Shown piece after piece: positions 2,815-33,662 of a DNA stretch of 33,662 bases. Positions within the stretch are counted from its first letter, which is position 1; every line of letters starts with the position of its first letter. The position numbers and the translations under genes are program-made. The notes below the pieces were generated by a model. That model searched no databases. It was not told the DNA's origin and saw nothing but the letters and a program-made list of their open reading frames with translations. This DNA is from Epilithonimonas bovis DSM 19482 (GTDB lineage: Bacteria > Bacteroidota > Bacteroidia > Flavobacteriales > Weeksellaceae), in NCBI RefSeq assembly GCF_900108115.1, contig NZ_FTPU01000034.1, forward strand, positions 1 through 33,662, in the 5' to 3' direction.

Positions 2815-2945
2815 ATTATGCTTCAGTTCTTTTCACCGGGCGACCCGCTGTCCACTGTATCTTTTTTCCCTGCGCAAGATCCAGGCAAAAAAAGGATGCC
2901 GTTCCCATCGGGGCTAAGTTGCAGGTTTTGTATGTCTTTTTTTTG
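2815..2945. repeat. GC-richer structured intergenic block, possibly a dispersed repeat
   Basis: No gene fits here. The block stands out from its AT-rich flanks. It contains self-complementary stretches such as CGGGCGACCCG (2838-2848), CCTGC paired with GCAGG, and a run of A (2887-2893). It looks like the hairpin-rich intergenic repeats scattered in flavobacterial genomes, but that resemblance is from memory and was not tested. Confidence 0.3.
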
Positions 2946-9283: not shown

Positions 9284-9332
9284 AATTAACATATGAAAAT
9301 TAACGACTTAATAAATTATGATCTATAACAAC

Positions 9333-10676
9333 ATGATAAAGTGGAAAAAACTGGCTCTGGGTGTTTTGACTGTTACGGGAACTCTGATGTATTCTCAGCA
9401 GACCATAACCCTAAAACAAGCCATAGAATATGCCTTGCAAAACAAAACGGATGCGCTGAAAGCTAAACTGGAAGTGACCAATGCAGATTACAAAATTGCA
9501 GAAGCTAAGGCCGGTGCCCTTCCAAAGATCAATGGAACAGCGAATCTGACTTATAATCCTATTTTGCAACAGAGTGCTCTAGATGTTGGAAAAGCTTTTG
9601 GCGGTCCAAGCAAAATTGAAATGGTTGCATTTGGACAACCTTGGATTGCAGGCGCAGGGGTTCAGTTGCAACAAGCTTTGTTTAATCAGCAGGTTTTTAT
9701 CGGACTGAAAGCTGCAAAATCTACCAAGGAGTTTTATCAACTGAATGCCGATCTTACGGACGAGCAGATCATTGAAAGAGTTTCCAACGCTTATTTCCAG
9801 GTTTTCACGGTTGAACAAAATCAGGAAACGCTCGAAAGCAGTTACACAAGCACGGAAAAAGTCAGAAATATTATTAAAAGTTTGTTTGACAACGGACTGG
9901 CAAAGAAAATCGATCTGGACAGAACTAATGTGAATCTTACCAATATCGAAACTAATATAAAACAGACCAAAAACGGAGTAGCTCAGGCAAAAAATGCACT
10001 TAAGTTTTATATGGGAATGCCAATTGAAAAAGATATACAGCTTGTAAAAGAGGATATGGAAATCACACCACATCTTCTTGAGAATACAATGAGTTCCGAT
10101 AACAGAACCGAAGTCAAAGTTTTGCTTAAAAATAAAGAACTCCTGGAGTATAATAAAAAAGCAACCGAGGCTGCTTATTATCCTACCGTTAATCTTACAG
10201 CGAATTATAACTGGCAGGGAATGGGTCCCAAGTTTCCACTCACAAATGGTACCTCTAACGGGGTTTATTGGTCCGATTATTCCGCAATTGGCTTAGGAAT
10301 CAATGTTCCTATTTTCAATGGATTTGCCACAAAGTCAAAAATTCAACAGGCGCAGATCGATCTGGATAAACTAAACCTAGATATTCAGGAAACCAAGCTT
10401 AGTTTAGATCTGGCTTATCAGAATGCCAAGTCACAAATAGAAAACAGCCTTAATACTTTAGAATATCAAAAGGCTAATGTAGCGCTCGCGGAAGATGTTC
10501 TTGCCAATACAAAAAGTAACTACCAATACGGGCTAGCAACACTGACAGATTTGCTTGATGCCGAAAACTCCTTGGTTCAGGCGAAGAATAATTATACCAA
10601 TGCCATTCTGGATTATAAAATTGCTGAGGTTCAGTATTACAAATCAAAAGGTGAACTTAAAACTTATTTAAAATAA
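9333..10676 (+). CDS. TolC-family outer membrane efflux protein
   Basis: About 447 residues from the ATG at 9333 (an alternative ATG at 9318 adds MIYNN). The N-terminus is a signal peptide (MIKWKKLALGVLTVTGTLMYSQ) cut before QTITLKQAIEYAL, the usual opening of outer membrane efflux proteins. Two repeats of the OEP fold follow, rich in Ala/Asn/Gln helices; the last is ANTKSNYQYGLATLTDLLDA, a typical repeat end. As a trimer it would form the outer-membrane and periplasmic channel of the pump encoded downstream. It is the first structural gene of the three-gene set, 72 bases before the adaptor gene. Confidence 0.92.
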   Translation: MIKWKKLALGVLTVTGTLMYSQQTITLKQAIEYALQNKTDALKAKLEVTNADYKIAEAKAGALPKINGTANLTYNPILQQSALDVGKAFGGPSKIEMVAFGQPWIAGAGVQLQQALFNQQVFIGLKAAKSTKEFYQLNADLTDEQIIERVSNAYFQVFTVEQNQETLESSYTSTEKVRNIIKSLFDNGLAKKIDLDRTNVNLTNIETNIKQTKNGVAQAKNALKFYMGMPIEKDIQLVKEDMEITPHLLENTMSSDNRTEVKVLLKNKELLEYNKKATEAAYYPTVNLTANYNWQGMGPKFPLTNGTSNGVYWSDYSAIGLGINVPIFNGFATKSKIQQAQIDLDKLNLDIQETKLSLDLAYQNAKSQIENSLNTLEYQKANVALAEDVLANTKSNYQYGLATLTDLLDAENSLVQAKNNYTNAILDYKIAEVQYYKSKGELKTYLK

Positions 10677-10748
10677 ACTATCAAAAATAACAGTTATAAA
10701 ATGAAATCTTTGATTCCATTTGACATTAAAAAAAAATAATTATTTCAA

Positions 10749-11810
10749 ATGAAAAAAACTTTAATATATATCATCGTAGCGGCTGTCCTAATTGGTTTAG
10801 CAGCTTGGAAAATTGCCGACAATAAGAAGAAGCAGGAAACTGAAGTAAAAGAAGTAGCAAAGCAGGTTGACAAAATTAATGTTAACGTGATTACCGCTTC
10901 TCGTGAAAATATCGATACAGATTATTCTGCAAACGGAACATTTATTCCAAAACAAGAGCTGCAGCAATCTTCAGAAATTTCCGGACGTATCGTAAATGTT
11001 TTGGTAAAAGAAGGTTCTAGAGTAGGAGCAGGTCAGGTTCTTGCAACCATCAAAAGAGATGCGATAGAGGTAGATGTTTCCCAGGCACAGAACAATTTGC
11101 AGAATGCTATTGCAGACAACCAGCGTTATGAAAACGCATATAAAACAGGTGGTGTTACAAAACAACAGCTTGATAATTCAAGATTACAACTGAAAAACGC
11201 TCAGGCTGCAGTGAGAGCACAAGGCGTAAGAGTAAATGATACCAGCGTAAGAGCAGGCATCAGCGGAACAATCAACAAAAAAATGGTTGAGCCGGGTGCT
11301 GTTGTGGCTCCGGGAACTGCATTATTTGAGATTGTTAATATCAATTCTCTTAAACTTTCTGTTCTCGTAGATGAGAGCCAGGTAGGAAGGATACAACTGG
11401 GCCAGGAAGTCAAAATTAATGTGAGTGTTTTGCCAGAGGATTCTTTTTCCGGCAGGATTACTTTTATTGCGCCAAAAAGTGATGCATCACTTAATTTCCC
11501 GGTTGAGGTAGAAGTTCAGAACAGAGGTAATCTAAAGGCCGGTATGTACGCCACAGCGGTTTTCAAAACCAATAATGGTGCAGCAACTCAAAATATGATG
11601 ACGGTTCCCGCAGAGGCCTTTGTAAACGGGGTAAGCTCCGGACAGCTTTTTATTGTACAAAATGGTGCGGCCAAATTAATCAAGGTCCAAACCGGTAAGG
11701 TGTATGGTGATAAAGTTCAGATTTTAGGAGGACTTAATGGCGGTGAGCAGGTGATCACAAGTGGACAGATCAATCTGGAGAATGGTTCAAAAATCAATAT
11801 CGTAAAGTAA
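10749..11810 (+). CDS. RND efflux periplasmic adaptor (membrane fusion protein)
   Basis: 353 residues with an N-terminal membrane anchor (residues 4-21). The biotinyl-lipoyl half-motifs flank a short alpha-hairpin: GRIVNVLVKEGSRVGAGQVLA before it and VRAGISGTINKKMVEPGAVV after it. A beta-barrel domain (VGRIQLGQEVKINVSVLP) and a membrane-proximal domain follow. Adaptors of this AcrA/MexA class join the inner-membrane RND pump to TolC. The hairpin is short, as in many Bacteroidota adaptors. The RND gene begins only 6 bases after the stop, so the genes are cotranscribed. Confidence 0.92.
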   Translation: MKKTLIYIIVAAVLIGLAAWKIADNKKKQETEVKEVAKQVDKINVNVITASRENIDTDYSANGTFIPKQELQQSSEISGRIVNVLVKEGSRVGAGQVLATIKRDAIEVDVSQAQNNLQNAIADNQRYENAYKTGGVTKQQLDNSRLQLKNAQAAVRAQGVRVNDTSVRAGISGTINKKMVEPGAVVAPGTALFEIVNINSLKLSVLVDESQVGRIQLGQEVKINVSVLPEDSFSGRITFIAPKSDASLNFPVEVEVQNRGNLKAGMYATAVFKTNNGAATQNMMTVPAEAFVNGVSSGQLFIVQNGAAKLIKVQTGKVYGDKVQILGGLNGGEQVITSGQINLENGSKINIVK

Positions 11811-11816
11811 GAGAAG

Positions 11817-14800
11817 ATGAAGTTAGCAGAAATATCCATTAAAAGACCTTCCCTGGTTATTGTATTATTTACAATATTGACGTTGGGAGGCCTGCTCAGT
11901 TACTCTATGATGGGGTATGAGCTAATACCGAAGTTTGAGACCAACATGGTCACCATTTCTACGGTATATCCCGGAGCGTCGCCAAGTGAAGTGGAAACTT
12001 CGGTTACCAGAAAAATTGAGGATGCTGTTGGTGCTTTGGAGAACGTAAAAAAAGTAGAATCATCATCTTACGAGAGTTTGTCTGTTATCATGATACAGCT
12101 GAACACGGGTGCTGATGTTAATTACGCTCTTAATGATGCCCAGCGTAAGGTGAATGCGATTCTGGCAGATCTGCCTGATGATGCCAAAGCACCGTCACTT
12201 AACAAGTTCTCTCTGGATGATCTACCGATTATGACCATGAGTATCTCCAGTGACAAGCTCAACAGCAAAGAACTATATGACCTTTTGGATAAAAAAGTAG
12301 AACCTATCTTTTCAAGGGTAAATGGTGTGGCTCAGGTAGACCTTGTTGGCGGCCAGGAAAGAGAAATCCAGGTCAATATAGATGAGAAAAAACTACAGGG
12401 TTACGGGCTGTCTATCGGTGATGTGCAGCAGGTTATCCTGTCATCTAACTTAGATTTCCCTACCGGGAGTTTAAAATCAAGAACAGACAAGTCTACCATC
12501 AGGCTTTCGGGTAAGTATAAATCAATTCAGGAGATGAACAATCTTGTGGTTTCTGATAAAAACGGAGCTCAGGTAAGGCTTTCTGATATTGCTACAGTTT
12601 TTGACACGCAGAAAGATGTAGAGAAGATTGCGAGATACAATCAGCTGCCTACCATCCTGATGCAGATTAAAAAACAATCGGATGCCAATGCGGTTACTGT
12701 ATCAGAAAGTGTTCAGAAAACCATGAATGAGGTGATGAAAAACTATGCAGCACAAGGCATCAAAGTTAAAATTGTTGATGACAGTACCAATTTTACCCTA
12801 GAAGCTGCGGATCACGTTATCTTTGACCTTTTTCTGGCGATTATATTAGTAGCGGTGGTGATGTTGTTGTTCTTACACAATATCCGTAATGCATTTATTG
12901 TAATGGTATCTATACCGGTTTCGTTGATTGCAACCTTTATTGGGATGTACCTGATGGGCTATACGCTTAACCTGATGAGTTTATTAGGATTATCTCTGGT
13001 TGTAGGTATTCTTGTGGATGACGCCATTGTAGTTTTGGAAAACGTTTACCGGCATATGGAGATGGGTAAAAGCAGAATCCGTGCGGCTTATGATGGTGCA
13101 TCAGAAATTGGGTTTACCGTTGCGGCTATTACGTTGGTAATCGTTGTAGTATTCTTACCAATTGCCATGAGCTCCGGACTTGTGTCTGATATCCTGGCGC
13201 AGTTCTGTGTGACGGTGGTTATCGCAACGCTGTTATCATTGCTGGCTTCATTCACAATCATTCCCTGGTTATCATCCAGATTTGGAAAATTGGTGCATCT
13301 TACAGGGAAAAATCCATTTGAGAAATTTATCCTTTGGTTTGAGAGACAGTTGGACAAATTCACGCATTGGATTACAGGTATCCTGGAGTGGTGTCTCAAA
13401 ACGACAGTGAGAAGAATAGCCACCGTGATTATCACTTTCCTTATTTTGATATCATCTTTTATGCTGGTGGCATTTGGATTTATCGGAGGTGAATTTTTCC
13501 CAAAATTAGACAGAGGCCAGTTCCTCGTACAAATAGAATTGCCTAAAAATGCTACGGTAGAGAAAACCAATCAGGTGACCCTTGCTGTAGAAAAGTATCT
13601 GAGACAAGATAAAGATGTGGTAGATCTTATTACAACCGTAGGGCAGCAATCCACAGGTTTTGGGGCTTCTCAGGCGACCGTTTACCAATCAGAGGTTCAG
13701 GTGATCCTTGTGGATAAAGCGGAGCGTGCAGAGAGTACAGACATTATTGCTGCTAAATTTAAAAGAGATCTTGAGGAGAAATTTACTGGTGTCGAGTTCA
13801 AAACAGCACCAATTGGTTTGATGGGAGCGGATAATGCACCAATCGAGATGGTGGTAACTGCACCTGACAATGAGACTGCAACCAAAGAAGCTACCAGAAT
13901 CTTACAATTACTCAAAAAAGTACCTGGCTCCGTAGATGCAGAATTATCTACCGATACCGGCAGCCCGGAAGTAAGGGTGAATATTGACCGGGATAAAATG
14001 GCAGCATTAGGCCTTAATCTTTCCAGTGTTGGGCAGACGATGCAAACAGCCTTCAATGGTAATACCGATGGTAAATACCGTGCCGGTGAATATGAGTATG
14101 ATATCAACATCCGTTTCGCAGACAACAACAGGCAATCTATTGATGATGTTAGAAACCTGATGTTTACCAACAGCAAAGGGCAGCAGATCAGACTTAGTCA
14201 GTTTGCCAATGTAGACATGAGTTCAGGGCCAAGTTTGCTGCAGCGCAGAGATAAAACACCATCTGTAAAAGTGCTTTCAAAAGTCGTTGGCCGCCCGGTT
14301 GGGGATGTCGCCAACGAATGGTCTGCCCAGTTTATGGATAACGAGAAAACCAAGCCTGCCGGTGTCAATTATATCTGGAGCGGTGATATGGAGAACCAGA
14401 CCGAAGGTTTTGGTACTCTGGGGATTGCCTTGATGGCAGCTATTATATTGGTTTACCTTGTAATGGTATCGCTGTATGACAGTTTTGTATATCCGTTTGT
14501 AGTATTGTTCTCAATCCCGTTGGCATTAATAGGTGTAATGGTGATCTTAGCACTGACAGGCAATTCATTGAATATCTTTACAATGTTGGGTATGATTATG
14601 TTGATTGGTTTGGTTGCGAAGAATGCGATTATGATTGTCGATTTTGCCAATATGAGAAAAGCAGCAGGAGCCAATACGCATGATGCGCTGATCCAGGCCA
14701 ACCATGCACGTCTTCGCCCGATCCTGATGACAACCATTGCAATGATCTTTGGTATGATCCCGATTGCGATAGCAAAAGGAGCAGGAGCGGAGATGAACAA

Positions 14801-15005
14801 CGGACTCGCTTGGGTAATTATCGGTGGTTTGACATCGTCATTATTCCTGACTTTGATTATCGTTCCGGTTGTATATTCATTATTTGACTCATTGCTTCGC
14901 AGAATGGGCAAACATAAAAAAGTGGATTATGAAGCTGAGATGAAAGCGGACTACGTACACAAAGAACTGAGTGAAGATGGCTTTACGCCAAAACATACAG
15001 ATTAA
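11817..15005 (+). CDS. RND-family multidrug efflux transporter, HAE1 type
   Basis: 1062 residues, the normal length for AcrB/MexB-type pumps, with twelve predicted membrane helices and two large periplasmic loops after TM1 and TM7. The proton-relay residues are present: Asp401-Asp402 in TM4 (GILVDDAIVVLEN) and Lys935 in TM10 (LVAKNAIMIVDF). It opens with the standard ISIKRPSLVIVLF start of the family. It should export drugs, detergents, bile acids or similar compounds from the inner membrane and periplasm, powered by protons. The substrate cannot be predicted. It is the last gene of the efflux set, followed by a strong terminator. Confidence 0.94.
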   Translation: MKLAEISIKRPSLVIVLFTILTLGGLLSYSMMGYELIPKFETNMVTISTVYPGASPSEVETSVTRKIEDAVGALENVKKVESSSYESLSVIMIQLNTGADVNYALNDAQRKVNAILADLPDDAKAPSLNKFSLDDLPIMTMSISSDKLNSKELYDLLDKKVEPIFSRVNGVAQVDLVGGQEREIQVNIDEKKLQGYGLSIGDVQQVILSSNLDFPTGSLKSRTDKSTIRLSGKYKSIQEMNNLVVSDKNGAQVRLSDIATVFDTQKDVEKIARYNQLPTILMQIKKQSDANAVTVSESVQKTMNEVMKNYAAQGIKVKIVDDSTNFTLEAADHVIFDLFLAIILVAVVMLLFLHNIRNAFIVMVSIPVSLIATFIGMYLMGYTLNLMSLLGLSLVVGILVDDAIVVLENVYRHMEMGKSRIRAAYDGASEIGFTVAAITLVIVVVFLPIAMSSGLVSDILAQFCVTVVIATLLSLLASFTIIPWLSSRFGKLVHLTGKNPFEKFILWFERQLDKFTHWITGILEWCLKTTVRRIATVIITFLILISSFMLVAFGFIGGEFFPKLDRGQFLVQIELPKNATVEKTNQVTLAVEKYLRQDKDVVDLITTVGQQSTGFGASQATVYQSEVQVILVDKAERAESTDIIAAKFKRDLEEKFTGVEFKTAPIGLMGADNAPIEMVVTAPDNETATKEATRILQLLKKVPGSVDAELSTDTGSPEVRVNIDRDKMAALGLNLSSVGQTMQTAFNGNTDGKYRAGEYEYDINIRFADNNRQSIDDVRNLMFTNSKGQQIRLSQFANVDMSSGPSLLQRRDKTPSVKVLSKVVGRPVGDVANEWSAQFMDNEKTKPAGVNYIWSGDMENQTEGFGTLGIALMAAIILVYLVMVSLYDSFVYPFVVLFSIPLALIGVMVILALTGNSLNIFTMLGMIMLIGLVAKNAIMIVDFANMRKAAGANTHDALIQANHARLRPILMTTIAMIFGMIPIAIAKGAGAEMNNGLAWVIIGGLTSSLFLTLIIVPVVYSLFDSLLRRMGKHKKVDYEAEMKADYVHKELSEDGFTPKHTD

Positions 15006-29637: not shown

Positions 29638-30171
29638 GTATTTCGATAATCTTCTTTATTGGTGATTTGTATAGCTATGAGACCTATTTGTACTGGGTAT
29701 CCTCTATTTTGAGGAATTGATAATATTTGCCTGTTATTTTGAGAACTTTACAATAAGAGCTTTGTTTTCAATCCATGAACTATCCATGGCTTTGGTATGG
29801 CTTTACTATGGCTTTGCTATGGGTGGAGTATTCATAATGGTAGGCCTAAATTTTTGAAAATGCCGTAAAGTCTCATGAATACAAGGTCTGGCTGTTAGTA
29901 TCACCAGGGAAATATAGATGTGATACAATGTGGTGAGGCTCTGCAGAATTGCGAAATTCGTAAAGCAGTTTAAGCGTCGTGGATATTATAATCAATATGC
30001 TGCGTTTATTGCTGGTAAGGGCATATTGCCAGTGAATATCTCAGGTAAGATTGAGTCGTTCGCTAACTTTTGGTAATCTATCTTTCCAATACTCTCATCA
30101 TTTTTCCGCATATAGATACCGACATCAATTGGTATTCTATTGATTTTATGAAAAAAAACATTGTTCGAGAG
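29638..30171. other. Gene-free region with 11-bp repeats and a possible gene remnant
   Basis: 534 bases with no intact gene. At 29786-29829 an 11-base unit, ATGGCTTTRST-like, occurs three times, followed by a diverged fourth unit. From 29924 to a TAA at 30076 a 50-codon frame without an ATG gives KQFKRRGYYNQYAAF and then IAGKGILPVNISGKIESFANFW. I do not recognise it; it may be the 3' remnant of a lost gene. The palindrome ATCAAT...ATTGAT (30124-30144) has a 9-base spacer. Confidence 0.35.
29786..29829. repeat. Tandem 11-bp repeat
   Basis: Units ATGGCTTTGGT, ATGGCTTTACT and ATGGCTTTGCT follow each other, then a diverged ATGGGTGGAGT. The three clean copies differ only at positions 9-10. No function is apparent. 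It lies about 150 bases after the kefC-like stop. Confidence 0.7.
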
Positions 30172-30417
30172 TCATTTTTCGCAGTTCAATTTAAAATCGA
30201 ATAATTGCTGTGGATGCACATCAAGTCCTTTGGCCAATTCTACTACAGTTGACATCTGAATATTTCTTAAACCCTTTTCTATTTTACTAATATCGCTATA
30301 ATCAATTTCACAATTTTGTGCTAATTGTCTAAGACTAAGTTGTTTCTCTTCTCTCAATATTTGAATCCTCTTTCCAAAGCCTTTTAGGAAAGCAATTTTT
30401 TCAGAGTTCATTTTCAT
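30172..30417 (-). CDS. XRE-family helix-turn-helix regulator
   Basis: About 81 residues from the ATG at 30417 (30411 is also possible). The Cro/C1-type domain is complete: RIQILREEKQLSLRQLAQNCEIDYSDISKIEKGLRNIQMSTVVELAKGL contains the two recognition helices (given here in part: SLRQLAQNCEIDYSDISKIE). An in-frame extension upstream to 30480 is weakly coding and overlaps a palindrome, so I exclude it. It is divergent from the sigma-dCas12f operon, about 380 bases away. GTGGG...CCCAC (30463-30480) between them is a candidate site for it. It may control the dCas12f operon or itself. A toxin partner was not seen. Confidence 0.75.
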   Translation of the reverse strand: MKMNSEKIAFLKGFGKRIQILREEKQLSLRQLAQNCEIDYSDISKIEKGLRNIQMSTVVELAKGLDVHPQQLFDFKLNCEK

Positions 30418-30798
30418 ATCAAACAAATTGATAGCAATTTCCATAGAAACAAAAAATAAATAGTGGGTAATTATTCCCACATTAGAATATTTTAATATAT
30501 TTGGAATAGATTATTTATGAAGATGTTTTTTGCGATAGTTTAAAAAAATATCGAAGCTATTGTTTAGATTCTCGACTAGAAAACTGGTAATTTTTTGTAT
30601 GAGGAGATAAGTTGGCGCACGGCTGTCACACGGGTTAATTATCGTACACAAGGTATGTTAGAATCTCTAGTCAATAAGTTGAGTTCCGCGCATTTTATTT
30701 TGGGCAATATGCAATGAGTTGGTGTTTTGAGGCGGAGAATTTATTTTTTTTATCTAAGCAGTTTCTTCAAGCAATAAAATAGATAAAATACGCTGTTT
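30418..30798. other. Intergenic region between XRE and sigma genes
   Basis: 381 bases. Apart from the palindrome and -7 box near 30463-30503, I see GC-richer stretches (30613-30650) and a short inverted sequence near 30568 (TTCTCGACTAGAA). No gene is visible. The region should hold the promoters of both divergent genes. Confidence 0.4.
30463..30503. promoter_or_regulatory. Candidate XRE operator and promoter box upstream of the sigma-dCas12f operon
   Basis: GTGGG (30463-30467) and CCCAC (30476-30480) are perfect inverted arms with an 8-base spacer, 46 bases upstream of the XRE start. On the plus strand TATATTTG (30496-30503) matches the Bacteroidota -7 box. The palindrome covers the region where its -33 element would be. 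If this is the real promoter, the sigma gene has a leader of about 290 bases; no -33 TTG is present, so the call is weak. Confidence 0.35.
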
Positions 30799-31614
30799 AT
30801 GAAAAGAACAAACTCTTTGTCCCGAAAGTTAAGCAATTTTCAGATGTACGAACTGTTGAAAAAGGGCAGTCCAAGCGCTCTGGAACATATTCATCTACGC
30901 TATAAAGGACTGCTTTTTTGGTATGGAAGACAAATGCTTGACGATGATTTTGTTGTTGAAACTCTTATTCAGGATACATTCCTTAAATTATGGCTGCACC
31001 GCGACACCATTGAAATCCCGAATCATATTCTTGGTTTTTTAAAGTTTGTTCTGAAAAGAGATTGCATATCGTATTTCAATGCTCCGAAAAATAAATTTAT
31101 CCGCTTAATTACTTCCCTTGAACGCTTTGAAAATTATCAGGATTATCTTGCAGGTTACGATCCCATGCACGATAAAGCGTATCTTCTCAGCCAGGAATCC
31201 GATCAGAAAAATTTTGATGAGGTTAAAAAGGTTTTGAACGTATTGGATGACAAAAGAAAACACCTGATTGAACTGTGCTTAGAATATGGTTTTCGGTACA
31301 AGCCGATTGCAGAAGTAATTGGAAGCAGTGTGACAGCCATAAGCAATGAGGTGAGCAGGGCCATCGATGATCTTCGGGAAATATTAAATAAAAGTTCTTT
31401 TGAACAGCCACAGGAAAAAGCTTCTGATATTAACGAGCAGTCGCAAAAGCTTACCAGTCAACAGCTCGAAATTATAAAAAGAAGGTTTGAGCAAAACTCT
31501 TCTTTCGCGGCTATTGCCGAACAACTTAAACTCAATGAAAAGGAAGTCCATCGGGAATTTCTGCATGCCTATCAATATATACAAAGTCAAAACATTTCTG
31601 AAATACCGCTTTGA
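30799..31614 (+). CDS. ECF-like sigma factor with extra C-terminal HTH, partner of dead Cas12f
   Basis: 271 residues, longer than common ECF factors (about 160-200). Region sigma-2 covers about residues 24-95 (SALEHIHLRYKGLLFWYGRQ, then LIQDTFLKLWLHRD, the core polymerase-binding helix). Sigma-4 covers about 140-196, ending in the helix-turn-helix YKPIAEVIGSSVTAISNEVS. A further predicted HTH at about 216-262 (LTSQQLEIIKRRFEQNSSFA, then AIAEQLKLNEKEVH) repeats the sigma-4 pattern. The dCas12f gene starts one base after the stop. In this gene pair the factor is expected to bind RNA polymerase and to be placed on DNA by the dCas12f-guide complex instead of by promoter motifs. No anti-sigma factor gene follows. 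Confidence 0.9.
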   Translation: MKRTNSLSRKLSNFQMYELLKKGSPSALEHIHLRYKGLLFWYGRQMLDDDFVVETLIQDTFLKLWLHRDTIEIPNHILGFLKFVLKRDCISYFNAPKNKFIRLITSLERFENYQDYLAGYDPMHDKAYLLSQESDQKNFDEVKKVLNVLDDKRKHLIELCLEYGFRYKPIAEVIGSSVTAISNEVSRAIDDLREILNKSSFEQPQEKASDINEQSQKLTSQQLEIIKRRFEQNSSFAAIAEQLKLNEKEVHREFLHAYQYIQSQNISEIPL

Positions 31615-31615
31615 A

Positions 31616-32710
31616 ATGGAAAAATCCACTATTACACTGACCCGAAAAATTCAATTACTGATCGATCTTCCTGCCCATGAAAAAAATGAAATGTGGGAAA
31701 AACTGTATCGGTATCAGAACCGCTGCTTCCGGGCGGCTAACTTAATAGCTTCCCATTTGTATGTTCAGGAAATGATCAAGGATTTCTTTTACCTAACCGA
31801 AGAAATCCAGTACAAGCTGGCTGATGCAAGCAAAGATGAAATGGGAATGTTCACCCGTTCGAAAACCAATACAACCGCACGCCTAGTCTATGACCTTTTT
31901 AAAGGAGAAATTCCTACCGATATTCTCGGAAGCCTGAATAATACGATCCAATCTACCTTTTCTAAAAATAAGGCTGATTACTGGCAGGGCTTAAGATCAT
32001 TGAAGAATTTTAAAAAAGACATTCCTATTCCGCTTCCGGTCAAATGTATGAGCAAAATGAGATATGATCATGAAAAAAAAGCTTTTTGCTTCAATATGTT
32101 TGCTATTCCGGTTAAAACTTATTTGGGGAAAGACTTTTCAGATAAACGATTAATAATGGAACGTCTGTTAAGGACAGAGATAAAGCTTTGCACATCACAG
32201 ATCCAACTAAAAGCCGGAAAAATCTATTGGCTTGCCGTATTTGAATTTGAGAAAGAAGAGCATCTTTTAAAGCCCGAAGTCATTGCCGAAGCTTCTCTTT
32301 CTCTGGAACATCCTATTGTAGTAAAGGCTAATAACGTACGAATCAATATTGGCTCAAAAGAAGAGTTTTTATACCGCAGGCTTGCAATTCAGGCAAGTCA
32401 GAAAAGAATTCAAGCGGGAGTTGCCTATGCCCATTCGGGAAATGGAGCCAAGCGGAAACAAAAGGCACTTTATAAAACAGAAAATTTGGAAAGCCGTTAT
32501 GTAAGCTATCGGCTTCACTTGTACAGCAGGAAGCTAATTGATTTTTGCATCCAGCAACAGGCCGGAACACTTATTCTTAAAAGTCAGGAGGACAAAATAG
32601 GCATTGCAAAAGAAAAGGAGTTTGTGCTTAGAAACTGGAGTTATTATGAATTGCAAACCAAAATAAAATATAAGGCAGAGAAGGCAGGCATCGAATTGAT
32701 TATTGGATAG
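31616..32710 (+). CDS. Nuclease-dead, truncated Cas12f/TnpB-like protein (dCas12f)
   Basis: 364 residues from the ATG at 31616, one base after the sigma stop. The N-terminal half has a Cas12f/TnpB-like WED/REC layout (KSTITLTRKIQLLI; YRYQNRCFRAANLIAS). The RuvC fold follows, but its catalytic residues are gone. ASLSLEHPIVVKANN (226-240) lines up with GVDLGVEHPAVVA of active enzymes, putting Ser227 in place of the Asp. GTLILKSQ (317-324) replaces GTIVLEDL, with Lys322 for the Glu. The chain stops after WSYYELQTKIKYKAEKAGIE, just before the zinc ribbon and last Asp. The flanking RuvC sequence is well kept (EEFLYRRLAIQASQKRIQAG), so loss of cutting was selected, not decay. It should bind a guide RNA and DNA without cutting. 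No transposase or IS200/605 ends are nearby. Confidence 0.92.
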   Translation: MEKSTITLTRKIQLLIDLPAHEKNEMWEKLYRYQNRCFRAANLIASHLYVQEMIKDFFYLTEEIQYKLADASKDEMGMFTRSKTNTTARLVYDLFKGEIPTDILGSLNNTIQSTFSKNKADYWQGLRSLKNFKKDIPIPLPVKCMSKMRYDHEKKAFCFNMFAIPVKTYLGKDFSDKRLIMERLLRTEIKLCTSQIQLKAGKIYWLAVFEFEKEEHLLKPEVIAEASLSLEHPIVVKANNVRINIGSKEEFLYRRLAIQASQKRIQAGVAYAHSGNGAKRKQKALYKTENLESRYVSYRLHLYSRKLIDFCIQQQAGTLILKSQEDKIGIAKEKEFVLRNWSYYELQTKIKYKAEKAGIELIIG

Positions 32711-32714
32711 CTAA

Positions 32715-32812
32715 AAAAATGAGGGTGCTTGTACACCCGTAGGGTGAGGTTTTGAACACTCACTAAATACTCAACAGTATATACAACGGCGTGGGCTCCT
32801 TTTTACCTAGTA
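32715..32812 (+). ncRNA. Candidate guide RNA of the dCas12f-sigma system
   Basis: Immediately after the dCas12f stop there are three short perfect hairpins. The first is GGGTG (32723-32727) with CACCC (32734-32738). The second is GTGAG (32744-32748) with CTCAC (32759-32763). The third is ATACT (32767-32771) with AGTAT (32776-32780). CACCC can instead pair with GGGTG at 32742-32746, so the fold may switch. The scaffold ends ATACAAC (32781-32787), like the ..GCAAC end of Cas12f repeats. The next 20 bases, GGCGTGGGCTCCTTTTTACC (32788-32807), are the proposed guide. No match to the guide longer than 8 bases was seen in this window, so the target lies elsewhere. The RNA is likely processed from the operon transcript. 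Confidence 0.72.
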
Positions 32813-33370: not shown

Positions 33371-33662
33371 ATGAATATATTTAGTTTTACAACGCATTTT
33401 GGGAGAGAGGAAGATTGCAGAATTCATTTTAAGGAGCAGAGAGATAAAATCGGAGTGGTTTGCAAGTGCGGTCACAAGGAGCATTTCTGGATTAAAAGCA
33501 TCTGGAGCTACGAATGCAAAAAGTGTCGTAAAAGAATTTCCTTGAAAAGTGGAACGATTATGCAAAATTCTAATCTTTCATTCTTAATTTGGTACAAAAC
33601 CATGTTTCTAATGAGCGTTACCAAGAAAGGGTTTTCATCGAAAGAGATTCAGAAACAATTGG
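33371..33662 (+). CDS. IS1595-family (ISXO2-like) transposase, N-terminal part, cut by window end
   Basis: Starts at the ATG at 33371 and stays open to the window end (97 codons). The N-terminal zinc ribbon is clear: VCKCGHKEHFWIK and WSYECKKCRKRISLKSGTIM, with Cys pairs near residues 40/42 and 57/60. LSFLIWYKTMFLMSVTKKGF with SSKEIQKQL is the usual next segment of ISXO2-like transposases. The catalytic domain lies beyond the window. Orientation matches the fragment at 1-330. The element lies about 560 bases from the guide RNA, so it may have helped to move or disturb the dCas12f locus. Confidence 0.85.
   Translation, partial: MNIFSFTTHFGREEDCRIHFKEQRDKIGVVCKCGHKEHFWIKSIWSYECKKCRKRISLKSGTIMQNSNLSFLIWYKTMFLMSVTKKGFSSKEIQKQL

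What the first reader, a model, noticed from the sequence alone, without database searches (positions are those of the whole stretch)
30799..32807. Sigma factor plus nuclease-dead Cas12f plus guide RNA: an RNA-guided transcription system
The sequence shows an ECF-like sigma gene, a one-base gap, a Cas12f/TnpB-like gene without its catalytic residues, and a folded noncoding stretch ending in a Cas12f-type repeat end plus a 20-base guide. Loss of all three acidic residues with a well-kept fold says the protein binds but does not cut. A sigma factor in the same operon says the bound site is meant to be transcribed. I recall recent work on dCas12f-sigmaE pairs in Bacteroidota in which the complex recruits RNA polymerase and starts transcription at a fixed distance (about 46 bp) downstream of the target with only a 5'-G target-adjacent motif; I cannot check that here. 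This locus looks like a member with its own guide and partner features.
Basis: partly seen in the sequence, partly recalled or inferred. Interest (0 to 1): 0.97.

Follow-up and report, generated by a model that had tools for sequence, protein, structure and literature searches.

The report
RNA-guided sigma factor and its target
This is a relative of a recently solved bacterial machine in which a cutting-dead CRISPR protein and a sigma factor are thought to use a guide RNA to switch on genes, and its guide matches a conserved control element found in front of such operons and of nutrient-uptake genes, which suggests what the machine naturally switches on.

Summary
The locus is real: an ECF-type sigma gene (30799-31614), a one-base gap, a nuclease-dead Cas12f gene (31616-32710) and a guide RNA (32721-about 32804). 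The dCas12f matches PDB chain 9N9C 'Nuclease-deactivated Cas12f' over its whole length (65.7% identity), the sigma matches 'RpoE' of 9N9Q (46.6%). So it belongs to an already solved dCas12f-sigma kind. Corrections: the RuvC-III/zinc-finger end is absent rather than mutated, and the '20-base guide' is GGCGTGGGCT(C) running into a U-run, shared by most close relatives. New here is the target: the guide copies an invariant stretch of a structured, covarying leader RNA (about 157 nt, no Rfam match) beside an XRE-type gene, before sigma-dCas12f operons and before SusC/SusD-type operons. In 28 carrier genomes, 131 exact matches split into 24 guides, 59 leaders, 48 others; the reversed-pattern control gives 49. 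More distant relatives carry guides copying 14-17 nt of the same stretch. Most likely the system activates itself and a SusC-type regulon from inside this leader. Weak points: the window's own leader is decayed, leaders are nearly as common without dCas12f, long guides match their own operon's leader with 1-2 mismatches, and start sites could not be tested.

The parts
30172..30480 (-). XRE/HTH_3 regulator gene divergent from the leader (102 aa)
   Evidence: Pfam HTH_3 E 4.4e-10; a similar gene stands before leaders elsewhere: HTH_3 in 22 of 32 proteins scanned
30496..30503 (+). TATATTTG, fits the recalled Bacteroidota promoter element TAnnTTTG
   Evidence: such a motif lies within 75 nt upstream of the leader in 21 of 21 loci of L002-L031 in which the leader start was recognised; consensus is recalled, no shuffled control was run
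30554..30698 (+). structured leader element; this copy is decayed and has lost the exact guide match
   Evidence: covariance model R1, 74 bits, E 3.4e-14; alignment
30799..31614 (+). ECF-type sigma factor (271 aa) with two region-4-like domains
   Evidence: 46.6% identity to 9N9Q chain C RpoE over 249 residues
31616..32710 (+). nuclease-dead Cas12f (364 aa), no RuvC-III and no zinc finger
   Evidence: 65.7% identity to 9N9C chain A
32721..32787 (+). guide RNA scaffold (three stem-loops, ends ATACAAC)
   Evidence: model R2, 93.4 bits, E 4.8e-16; alignments A2, A4
32788..32804 (+). guide GGCGTGGGCTCC running into TTTTT; homology to most relatives ends here

Best explanation
It is a dCas12f-sigma RNA-guided transcription operon. 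The stretch after the stop codon encodes a compact guide RNA; dCas12f with this RNA should bind, without cutting, DNA that carries (G)GCGTGGGCT, and bring the sigma factor and RNA polymerase to start transcription a fixed distance downstream. Shown here: homology to the solved complex, loss of the nuclease, linkage of guide RNA and protein, and the identity of guide and leader motif. Inferred: complex formation, DNA binding, transcription start. The natural target is an invariant stretch in the 3' arm of a structured leader that stands, next to an XRE-type gene, before sigma-dCas12f operons (feedback) and before SusC/SusD-type uptake operons. Starting inside the leader would skip the leader's own promoter and most of the folded leader, including the strand that can pair with the trailing CCACGCC-UUUU. 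In this genome the own-operon leader is decayed, so the system probably acts here on three other leaders (contigs C31, C65, C78).
For: Full-length match to 9N9C (E 2.2e-196) and sigma match to 9N9Q RpoE (E 1.1e-76). Guide scaffold in 36 of 36 dCas12f genomes and 0 of 31 without. In 28 carrier genomes 131 exact GGCGTGGGCT: 24 guides, 59 in leaders, all on the leader's strand at offset 73-86, 48 elsewhere; reversed-pattern control 49. Exact motif 169-179 nt before the sigma start in 14 of 30 loci. Leader ahead of sigma-dCas12f in 20 of 28 named loci searched (17 of the 25 at 63-68% identity, two Echinicola included, and 3 of 3 Weeksellaceae). Guides of more distant relatives copy 14-17 nt of leader sequence contiguously, unpaired internal-loop bases included. 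15-mer search in 10 such genomes: 52 hits against 11 control; of the 30 loci fetched from it 16 hold a leader, 10 are guides, 4 neither. Downstream genes: SusC-type receptors, SusD, thioredoxin-like proteins, ECF sigma. For the Allomuricauda guide (genus of the 9N9C protein) 3 of 4 non-guide sites with one mismatch lie 187-216 nt downstream of such a leader.
Against: No transcription, binding or start site was measured. The window's own leader has lost the motif. Leaders occur in 28 of 31 genomes without dCas12f, 3.1 per genome against 4.0 in carriers (recount), and the 12 best ones checked there keep the motif, so the motif is kept for another reason too. Long guides differ from their own operon's leader at 1-2 of 15 positions in 8 of 8 cases. 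With the guide boundary after ACAAC, the base before GGCGTGGGCT is C, A or T in most leaders printed; the 5'-G fits there only if the guide starts one base later. The 10-12-nt match of the short guides is short. The shifted guides of genus g21 show no enrichment, they fall below their control, and the extra guides of tandem arrays have no target found. Divergent guides (e.g. Echinicola) do not match their leader. In Allomuricauda taeanensis itself no non-guide site with at most 1 mismatch was found. Leaders in A1 were collected through the guide motif, so R1 was trained on it.
Confidence: 0.8

Rival explanations
1. The guide stretch acts on the leader RNA, not on DNA: it mimics the leader's 3' arm and competes for the trailing CCACGCC or the 5' arm, shifting a terminator-like fold.
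For: The leader is a real structured RNA (83 double-change cells against 19.0 in shuffles, 0 of 500); the motif can pair with the trailing segment in 100% of cells; the leader is widespread without dCas12f.
Against: Long guides also copy unpaired internal-loop bases of leader sequence contiguously, which RNA mimicry would not need; the partners are a DNA-binding protein type and a sigma factor; in Allomuricauda the guide matches DNA beside, not inside, the leader.
Confidence: 0.1
2. In this genome the locus is a decaying copy with little function.
For: The own leader is decayed (74 bits, against about 150-170 for the better class); several split or stop-bearing dCas12f copies occur among relatives.
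Against: Both window ORFs are open and dCas12f ends like its homologs; the window's guide scaffold gives the best score of the search (93.4 bits); other leaders remain in the genome.
Confidence: 0.2
3. dCas12f blocks rather than starts transcription, like TldR repressors, and the sigma factor works apart.
For: Nuclease-dead TnpB homologs (TldR) are described as repressors (passages of PMC13418256).
Against: The pair matches chains deposited together in 9N9Q as dCas12f and RpoE; DNA homology runs through sigma and dCas12f together in 29 of 29 relatives, and the two genes are neighbours in 9 of 9 g21 loci listed.
Confidence: 0.06

Closest known systems
dCas12f-RpoE complex of PDB 9N9C/9N9M/9N9O/9N9Q (dCas12f identical to that of Allomuricauda taeanensis, L282)
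   Same: dCas12f homologous over its full length with the same truncated C-terminus, sigma over 249 residues; same guide scaffold type downstream; the same leader and a small divergent ORF upstream in A. taeanensis (L334).
   Different: The guide there is TTGTGGGATATACGC..., not the leader motif; in sister species it matches sites just downstream of leaders. Here the guide is short, ends in a U-run and points into the leader.
TldR, nuclease-dead TnpB-like repressors
   Same: Nuclease-dead, RNA-guided; short guides are recalled.
   Different: No sigma partner (recalled); described as phage-encoded regulator of flagellin in PMC13418256 (passages); here activation is expected.
Cas12f (type V-F) nucleases, e.g. 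9NZO
   Same: Cas12f sequence family (E 4.5e-51).
   Different: Catalytic Asp and Glu replaced, RuvC-III and zinc finger missing, one guide RNA instead of an array.

Membership tests
dCas12f-sigma RNA-guided transcription system | dCas12f homolog of the solved complex, full length | tested here: met
   1-365 of 365, E 2.2e-196, 65.7% identity
dCas12f-sigma RNA-guided transcription system | RuvC acidic residues lost | tested here: met
   Ser227, Lys322, RuvC-III absent
dCas12f-sigma RNA-guided transcription system | cognate RpoE-type sigma gene next to it | tested here: met
   46.6% identity to 9N9Q chain C over 249 residues, one-base gap
dCas12f-sigma RNA-guided transcription system | dedicated guide RNA encoded at the locus | tested here: met
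   36 of 36 carriers, 0 of 31 non-carriers
dCas12f-sigma RNA-guided transcription system | genomic target matching the guide, upstream of genes | tested here: met
   59 leader sites in 28 genomes while the rest equals the control; exact site in own genome at C31
dCas12f-sigma RNA-guided transcription system | 5'-G target-adjacent motif (recalled) | tested here: inconclusive
   G precedes GCGTGGGCT-type sites in 8 of 8 long-guide loci, but mostly C/A/T precede GGCGTGGGCT for the short guides
dCas12f-sigma RNA-guided transcription system | transcription starts a fixed distance downstream (recalled) | not testable with these tools
   needs RNA-seq or 5' RACE
Type V-F CRISPR nuclease (Cas12f) | intact RuvC catalytic residues | tested here: not met
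Type V-F CRISPR nuclease (Cas12f) | CRISPR array | tested here: not met
   only one scaffold found in the own genome; no separate array search was run
TldR | flagellin or oppF context, no sigma partner (recalled) | tested here: not met
   sigma partner present; neighbours of the leaders are XRE-type and SusC-type genes

The most novel reading that the evidence does not exclude
The dCas12f-sigma system is the master switch of a leader-marked regulon. One guide, copied from the most invariant part of a new structured leader RNA, lets it start transcription inside such leaders, bypass the leader's own promoter and an attenuator-like fold, and turn on SusC/SusD-type surface-uptake operons and its own operon in feedback. 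Guide and leader have stayed matched in Weeksellaceae and Flavobacteriaceae, and the leader stands before the sigma-dCas12f operon even in another order (Echinicola), where the guide has changed.
Probability: 0.5. Interest if true: 0.88.

Novelty: new variant of a known kind. Interest (0 to 1): 0.74.

Why it matters
A solved machine exists without an account, in what I could read, of what it does in nature. A guide that matches a defined leader before surface-receptor operons and before sigma-dCas12f operons themselves gives a concrete native regulon and a feedback circuit that can be tested. The leader itself has no match in Rfam 15 and appears to be an undescribed RNA family.

Tried and rejected
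The 20-mer guide reading found only itself. The extra guides of tandem arrays (TGAGCGGTTTTC, GGGGCGGTTTTC, AGAGCGCCTTTC) gave no clear targets: pattern KGRGCGGTTTT has 16-32 hits per genome against 3-12 in the control, but alike in all 8 genomes whether or not they carry these guides. The third of these guides was not searched. The shifted guides of g21 (RGCTYACTTATYG, up to 1 mismatch) are below their control in 7 of 7 genomes. The Allomuricauda guide pattern at up to 2 mismatches is only mildly above its control (60 against 39 in 4 genomes). No relative found in viral contigs with this query. Rfam gave no match to the leader in 11 loci; a sub-threshold tmRNA match in L020 covers part of its guide-RNA array, the other weak hits look like chance. 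Considered and rejected: terminal repeats of a transposon (each standalone leader locus printed shows one motif copy only) and a CRISPR array (one scaffold). Literature: six searches, seen as listings, found no paper on the system in the library; its primary papers are recalled only, so I do not claim that the target is absent from print. One paper was seen as passages (PMC13418256).

Full report
What is in the window. The sigma ORF 30799-31614 has Sigma70 region 2 and two region-4-like stretches and passes the NCBIfam sigma70-ECF cut-off. One base later dCas12f starts (31616-32710). A profile of 13 dCas12f sequences (A5) hits PDB chain 9N9C_A 'Nuclease-deactivated Cas12f' over 1-365 at E 2.2e-196; pairwise identity is 65.7%. 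The sigma hits 9N9Q_C 'RpoE' at E 1.1e-76, 46.6% over 249 aligned residues. All 13 aligned sequences end at the same place, just before the zinc finger and RuvC-III of active Cas12f. From the alignment to Cas12f 9NZO the RuvC-I Asp is Ser227 and the RuvC-II Glu is Lys322. So nuclease loss is confirmed, partly by absence of the end.

The guide RNA. A conserved scaffold of three stem-loops follows the stop codon. Covariance model R2 finds it in 36 of 36 dCas12f genomes and in 0 of 31 genomes without dCas12f (67 searched). DNA homology with most relatives ends at about window 32804. The guide is GGCGTGGGCT (or GGCGTGGGTT) followed by a U-run in most loci of the family. Tandem arrays of two to four scaffolds, some with extra guides, occur in genus g26, in g21 and in L290.

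The target. In 14 of 30 loci an exact second copy of the 10-mer lies 169-179 nt before the sigma start. In 28 carrier genomes there are 131 exact copies: 24 are guides, 59 lie in one kind of element, all on its strand and at offset 73-86, and 48 lie elsewhere, which equals the reversed-pattern control of 49. The list of leaders used was cut by the tool, so 59 is a lower bound. The element is a structured leader: in 21 aligned copies 98.3% of cells pair, 18 of 31 pairs show changes on both sides, and 83 double-change cells face 19.0 in shuffles, 0 of 500 reaching it; slid controls pair 28-43%. These 21 copies were found through the motif, so motif conservation in them is partly by selection; the covariation of the other helices is not. 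Rfam has no match (11 loci scanned). A second helix between the motif and a trailing CCACGCC before a U-run pairs in all cells but varies little (one pair with a double change), so it is only suggestive of an attenuator.

Spread of the leader. R1 finds it in 57 of 60 family genomes: 29 of 29 with and 28 of 31 without dCas12f, 4.0 against 3.1 copies per genome (recount). Thus the leader has a life apart from dCas12f. It stands next to a small divergent gene: of 52 leaders examined 44 had an upstream divergent ORF, and of 32 proteins scanned (31 of these 44 plus the window's) 22 match HTH_3. A TAnnTTTG promoter-like motif precedes the leader in 21 of 21 loci of L002-L031 where the leader start was recognised (the consensus is recalled, no control). 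Downstream stand sigma-dCas12f, SusC-type TonB receptors, SusD, thioredoxin-like (TlpA-type by eye) proteins, ECF sigma genes, or unidentified genes.

Why I think the DNA of the leader is the target. Relatives at 63-68% identity in Flavobacteriaceae carry guides such as GCGTGGGCTCTCTTAT or GCGTGGGCTCACTTA, contiguous copies of leader sequence including bases unpaired in the fold (Sinomicrobium is Flavobacteriaceae). A 15-mer search in 10 such genomes gives 52 hits against 11 in the control. Of the 30 loci fetched from it 16 hold a leader, 10 are guides and 4 neither. The own operon's leader differs from the own guide at 1-2 of 15 positions in 8 of 8 cases, each preceded by G, so in these genomes the exact matches lie mostly at other leaders. 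In 20 of 28 named loci searched the leader lies 0.87-1.19 kb before the dCas12f start, that is ahead of sigma: 17 of 25 at 63-68% identity and 3 of 3 Weeksellaceae. Two of the 17 are Echinicola, order Cytophagales, whose guides do not match it. L282 (Allomuricauda taeanensis) encodes the 9N9C protein exactly. Its guide is different, but in sister species 3 of 4 non-guide sites with one mismatch to that guide lie 187-216 nt downstream of a leader, and in L360 the site is 96 nt before a SusC-type ORF. In A. taeanensis itself no such site was found. So the solved system is tied to the same leader-SusC neighbourhood by a second guide.

The window itself. Its leader (30554-30698) is decayed, 74 bits, without the motif. 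The own genome has three more leaders: C31 (exact motif, before a small ORF), C65 (GGCGTGAGCT) and C78 (GGCGTGGCCT), the last two before a thioredoxin-like gene followed by a TonB-receptor-type gene (Pfam run on the C65 pair only; C78 by eye). One further exact 10-mer at C33 is not in a leader.

Against. No function was measured. The leader motif is kept without dCas12f (the 12 best-scoring leaders checked). The 5'-G motif fits the short guides only if they start at the second G. Shifted guides in g21 show no enrichment, and several guides (L281, L284, L282/285-287 in their own leader, L295/296, L150-153 and the extra tandem guides) remain unexplained.

Mechanism and judgement. Established by comparison: membership in the solved dCas12f-sigma kind. 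Inferred: guide-directed recruitment of RNA polymerase inside leaders. If the recalled distance of about 46 bp holds, the start would fall after the last strand of the main fold and before TTGAGTTCCACGCC, so the new RNA would lack the strand that can form the terminator-like helix. The kind is known; the shared short guide, the leader family and the self-plus-SusC regulon are what I would call new, with the caveat that the primary papers could not be read.

Noticed in passing
window 2837-2919 (-): Rfam Flavo-1 RNA, 59.8 bits.
   Followed up: no
window 9318-15005 (+): Tripartite efflux operon: OEP, HlyD-type and AcrB-type proteins.
   Followed up: no
window 33371-33661 (+): Start of an ORF running off the end that recalls an IS1595-type transposase; Pfam gives no match to the 97 aa seen, so the name is recalled only.
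   Followed up: partly
window 29638-30171 (-): No long open frame behind the XRE gene, only a stretch of about 60 codons in one frame; in standalone leaders a full and variable gene often stands there (KAP-like, NYN-like and others by eye).
   Followed up: partly
genus g26 loci L012, L020, L050, L051: Tandem guide RNAs with extra guides TGAGCGGTTTTC, GGGGCGGTTTTC, AGAGCGCCTTTC; targets not found.
   Followed up: partly
L020 804-1248 (-): A tmRNA-like match below the Rfam threshold (35.1 of 47 bits, E 1.1e-10) that overlaps the guide-RNA array and ends in a tRNA-like 3' end; possibly an integration site of an island.
   Followed up: no
L145, L146: dCas12f loci beside relaxase-like mobilisation genes (and a serine-recombinase-like gene in L145), by eye; the patchy, multi-copy spread with broken copies suggests carriage on mobile islands.
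   Followed up: no
L174, L179, L180, L191: A leader subclass (GGCGTGGGCGCTCGC in three of them) with an unidentified gene family starting about 130 nt downstream.
   Followed up: no
L262: Elizabethkingia miricola carries the locus with the same guide and a leader upstream that has a changed motif (GGCATGAGTC).
   Followed up: no
L033 (own genome C33:117449): An exact guide 10-mer outside any leader, near ParA-like and mobilisation-like genes by eye, preceded by G.
   Followed up: no
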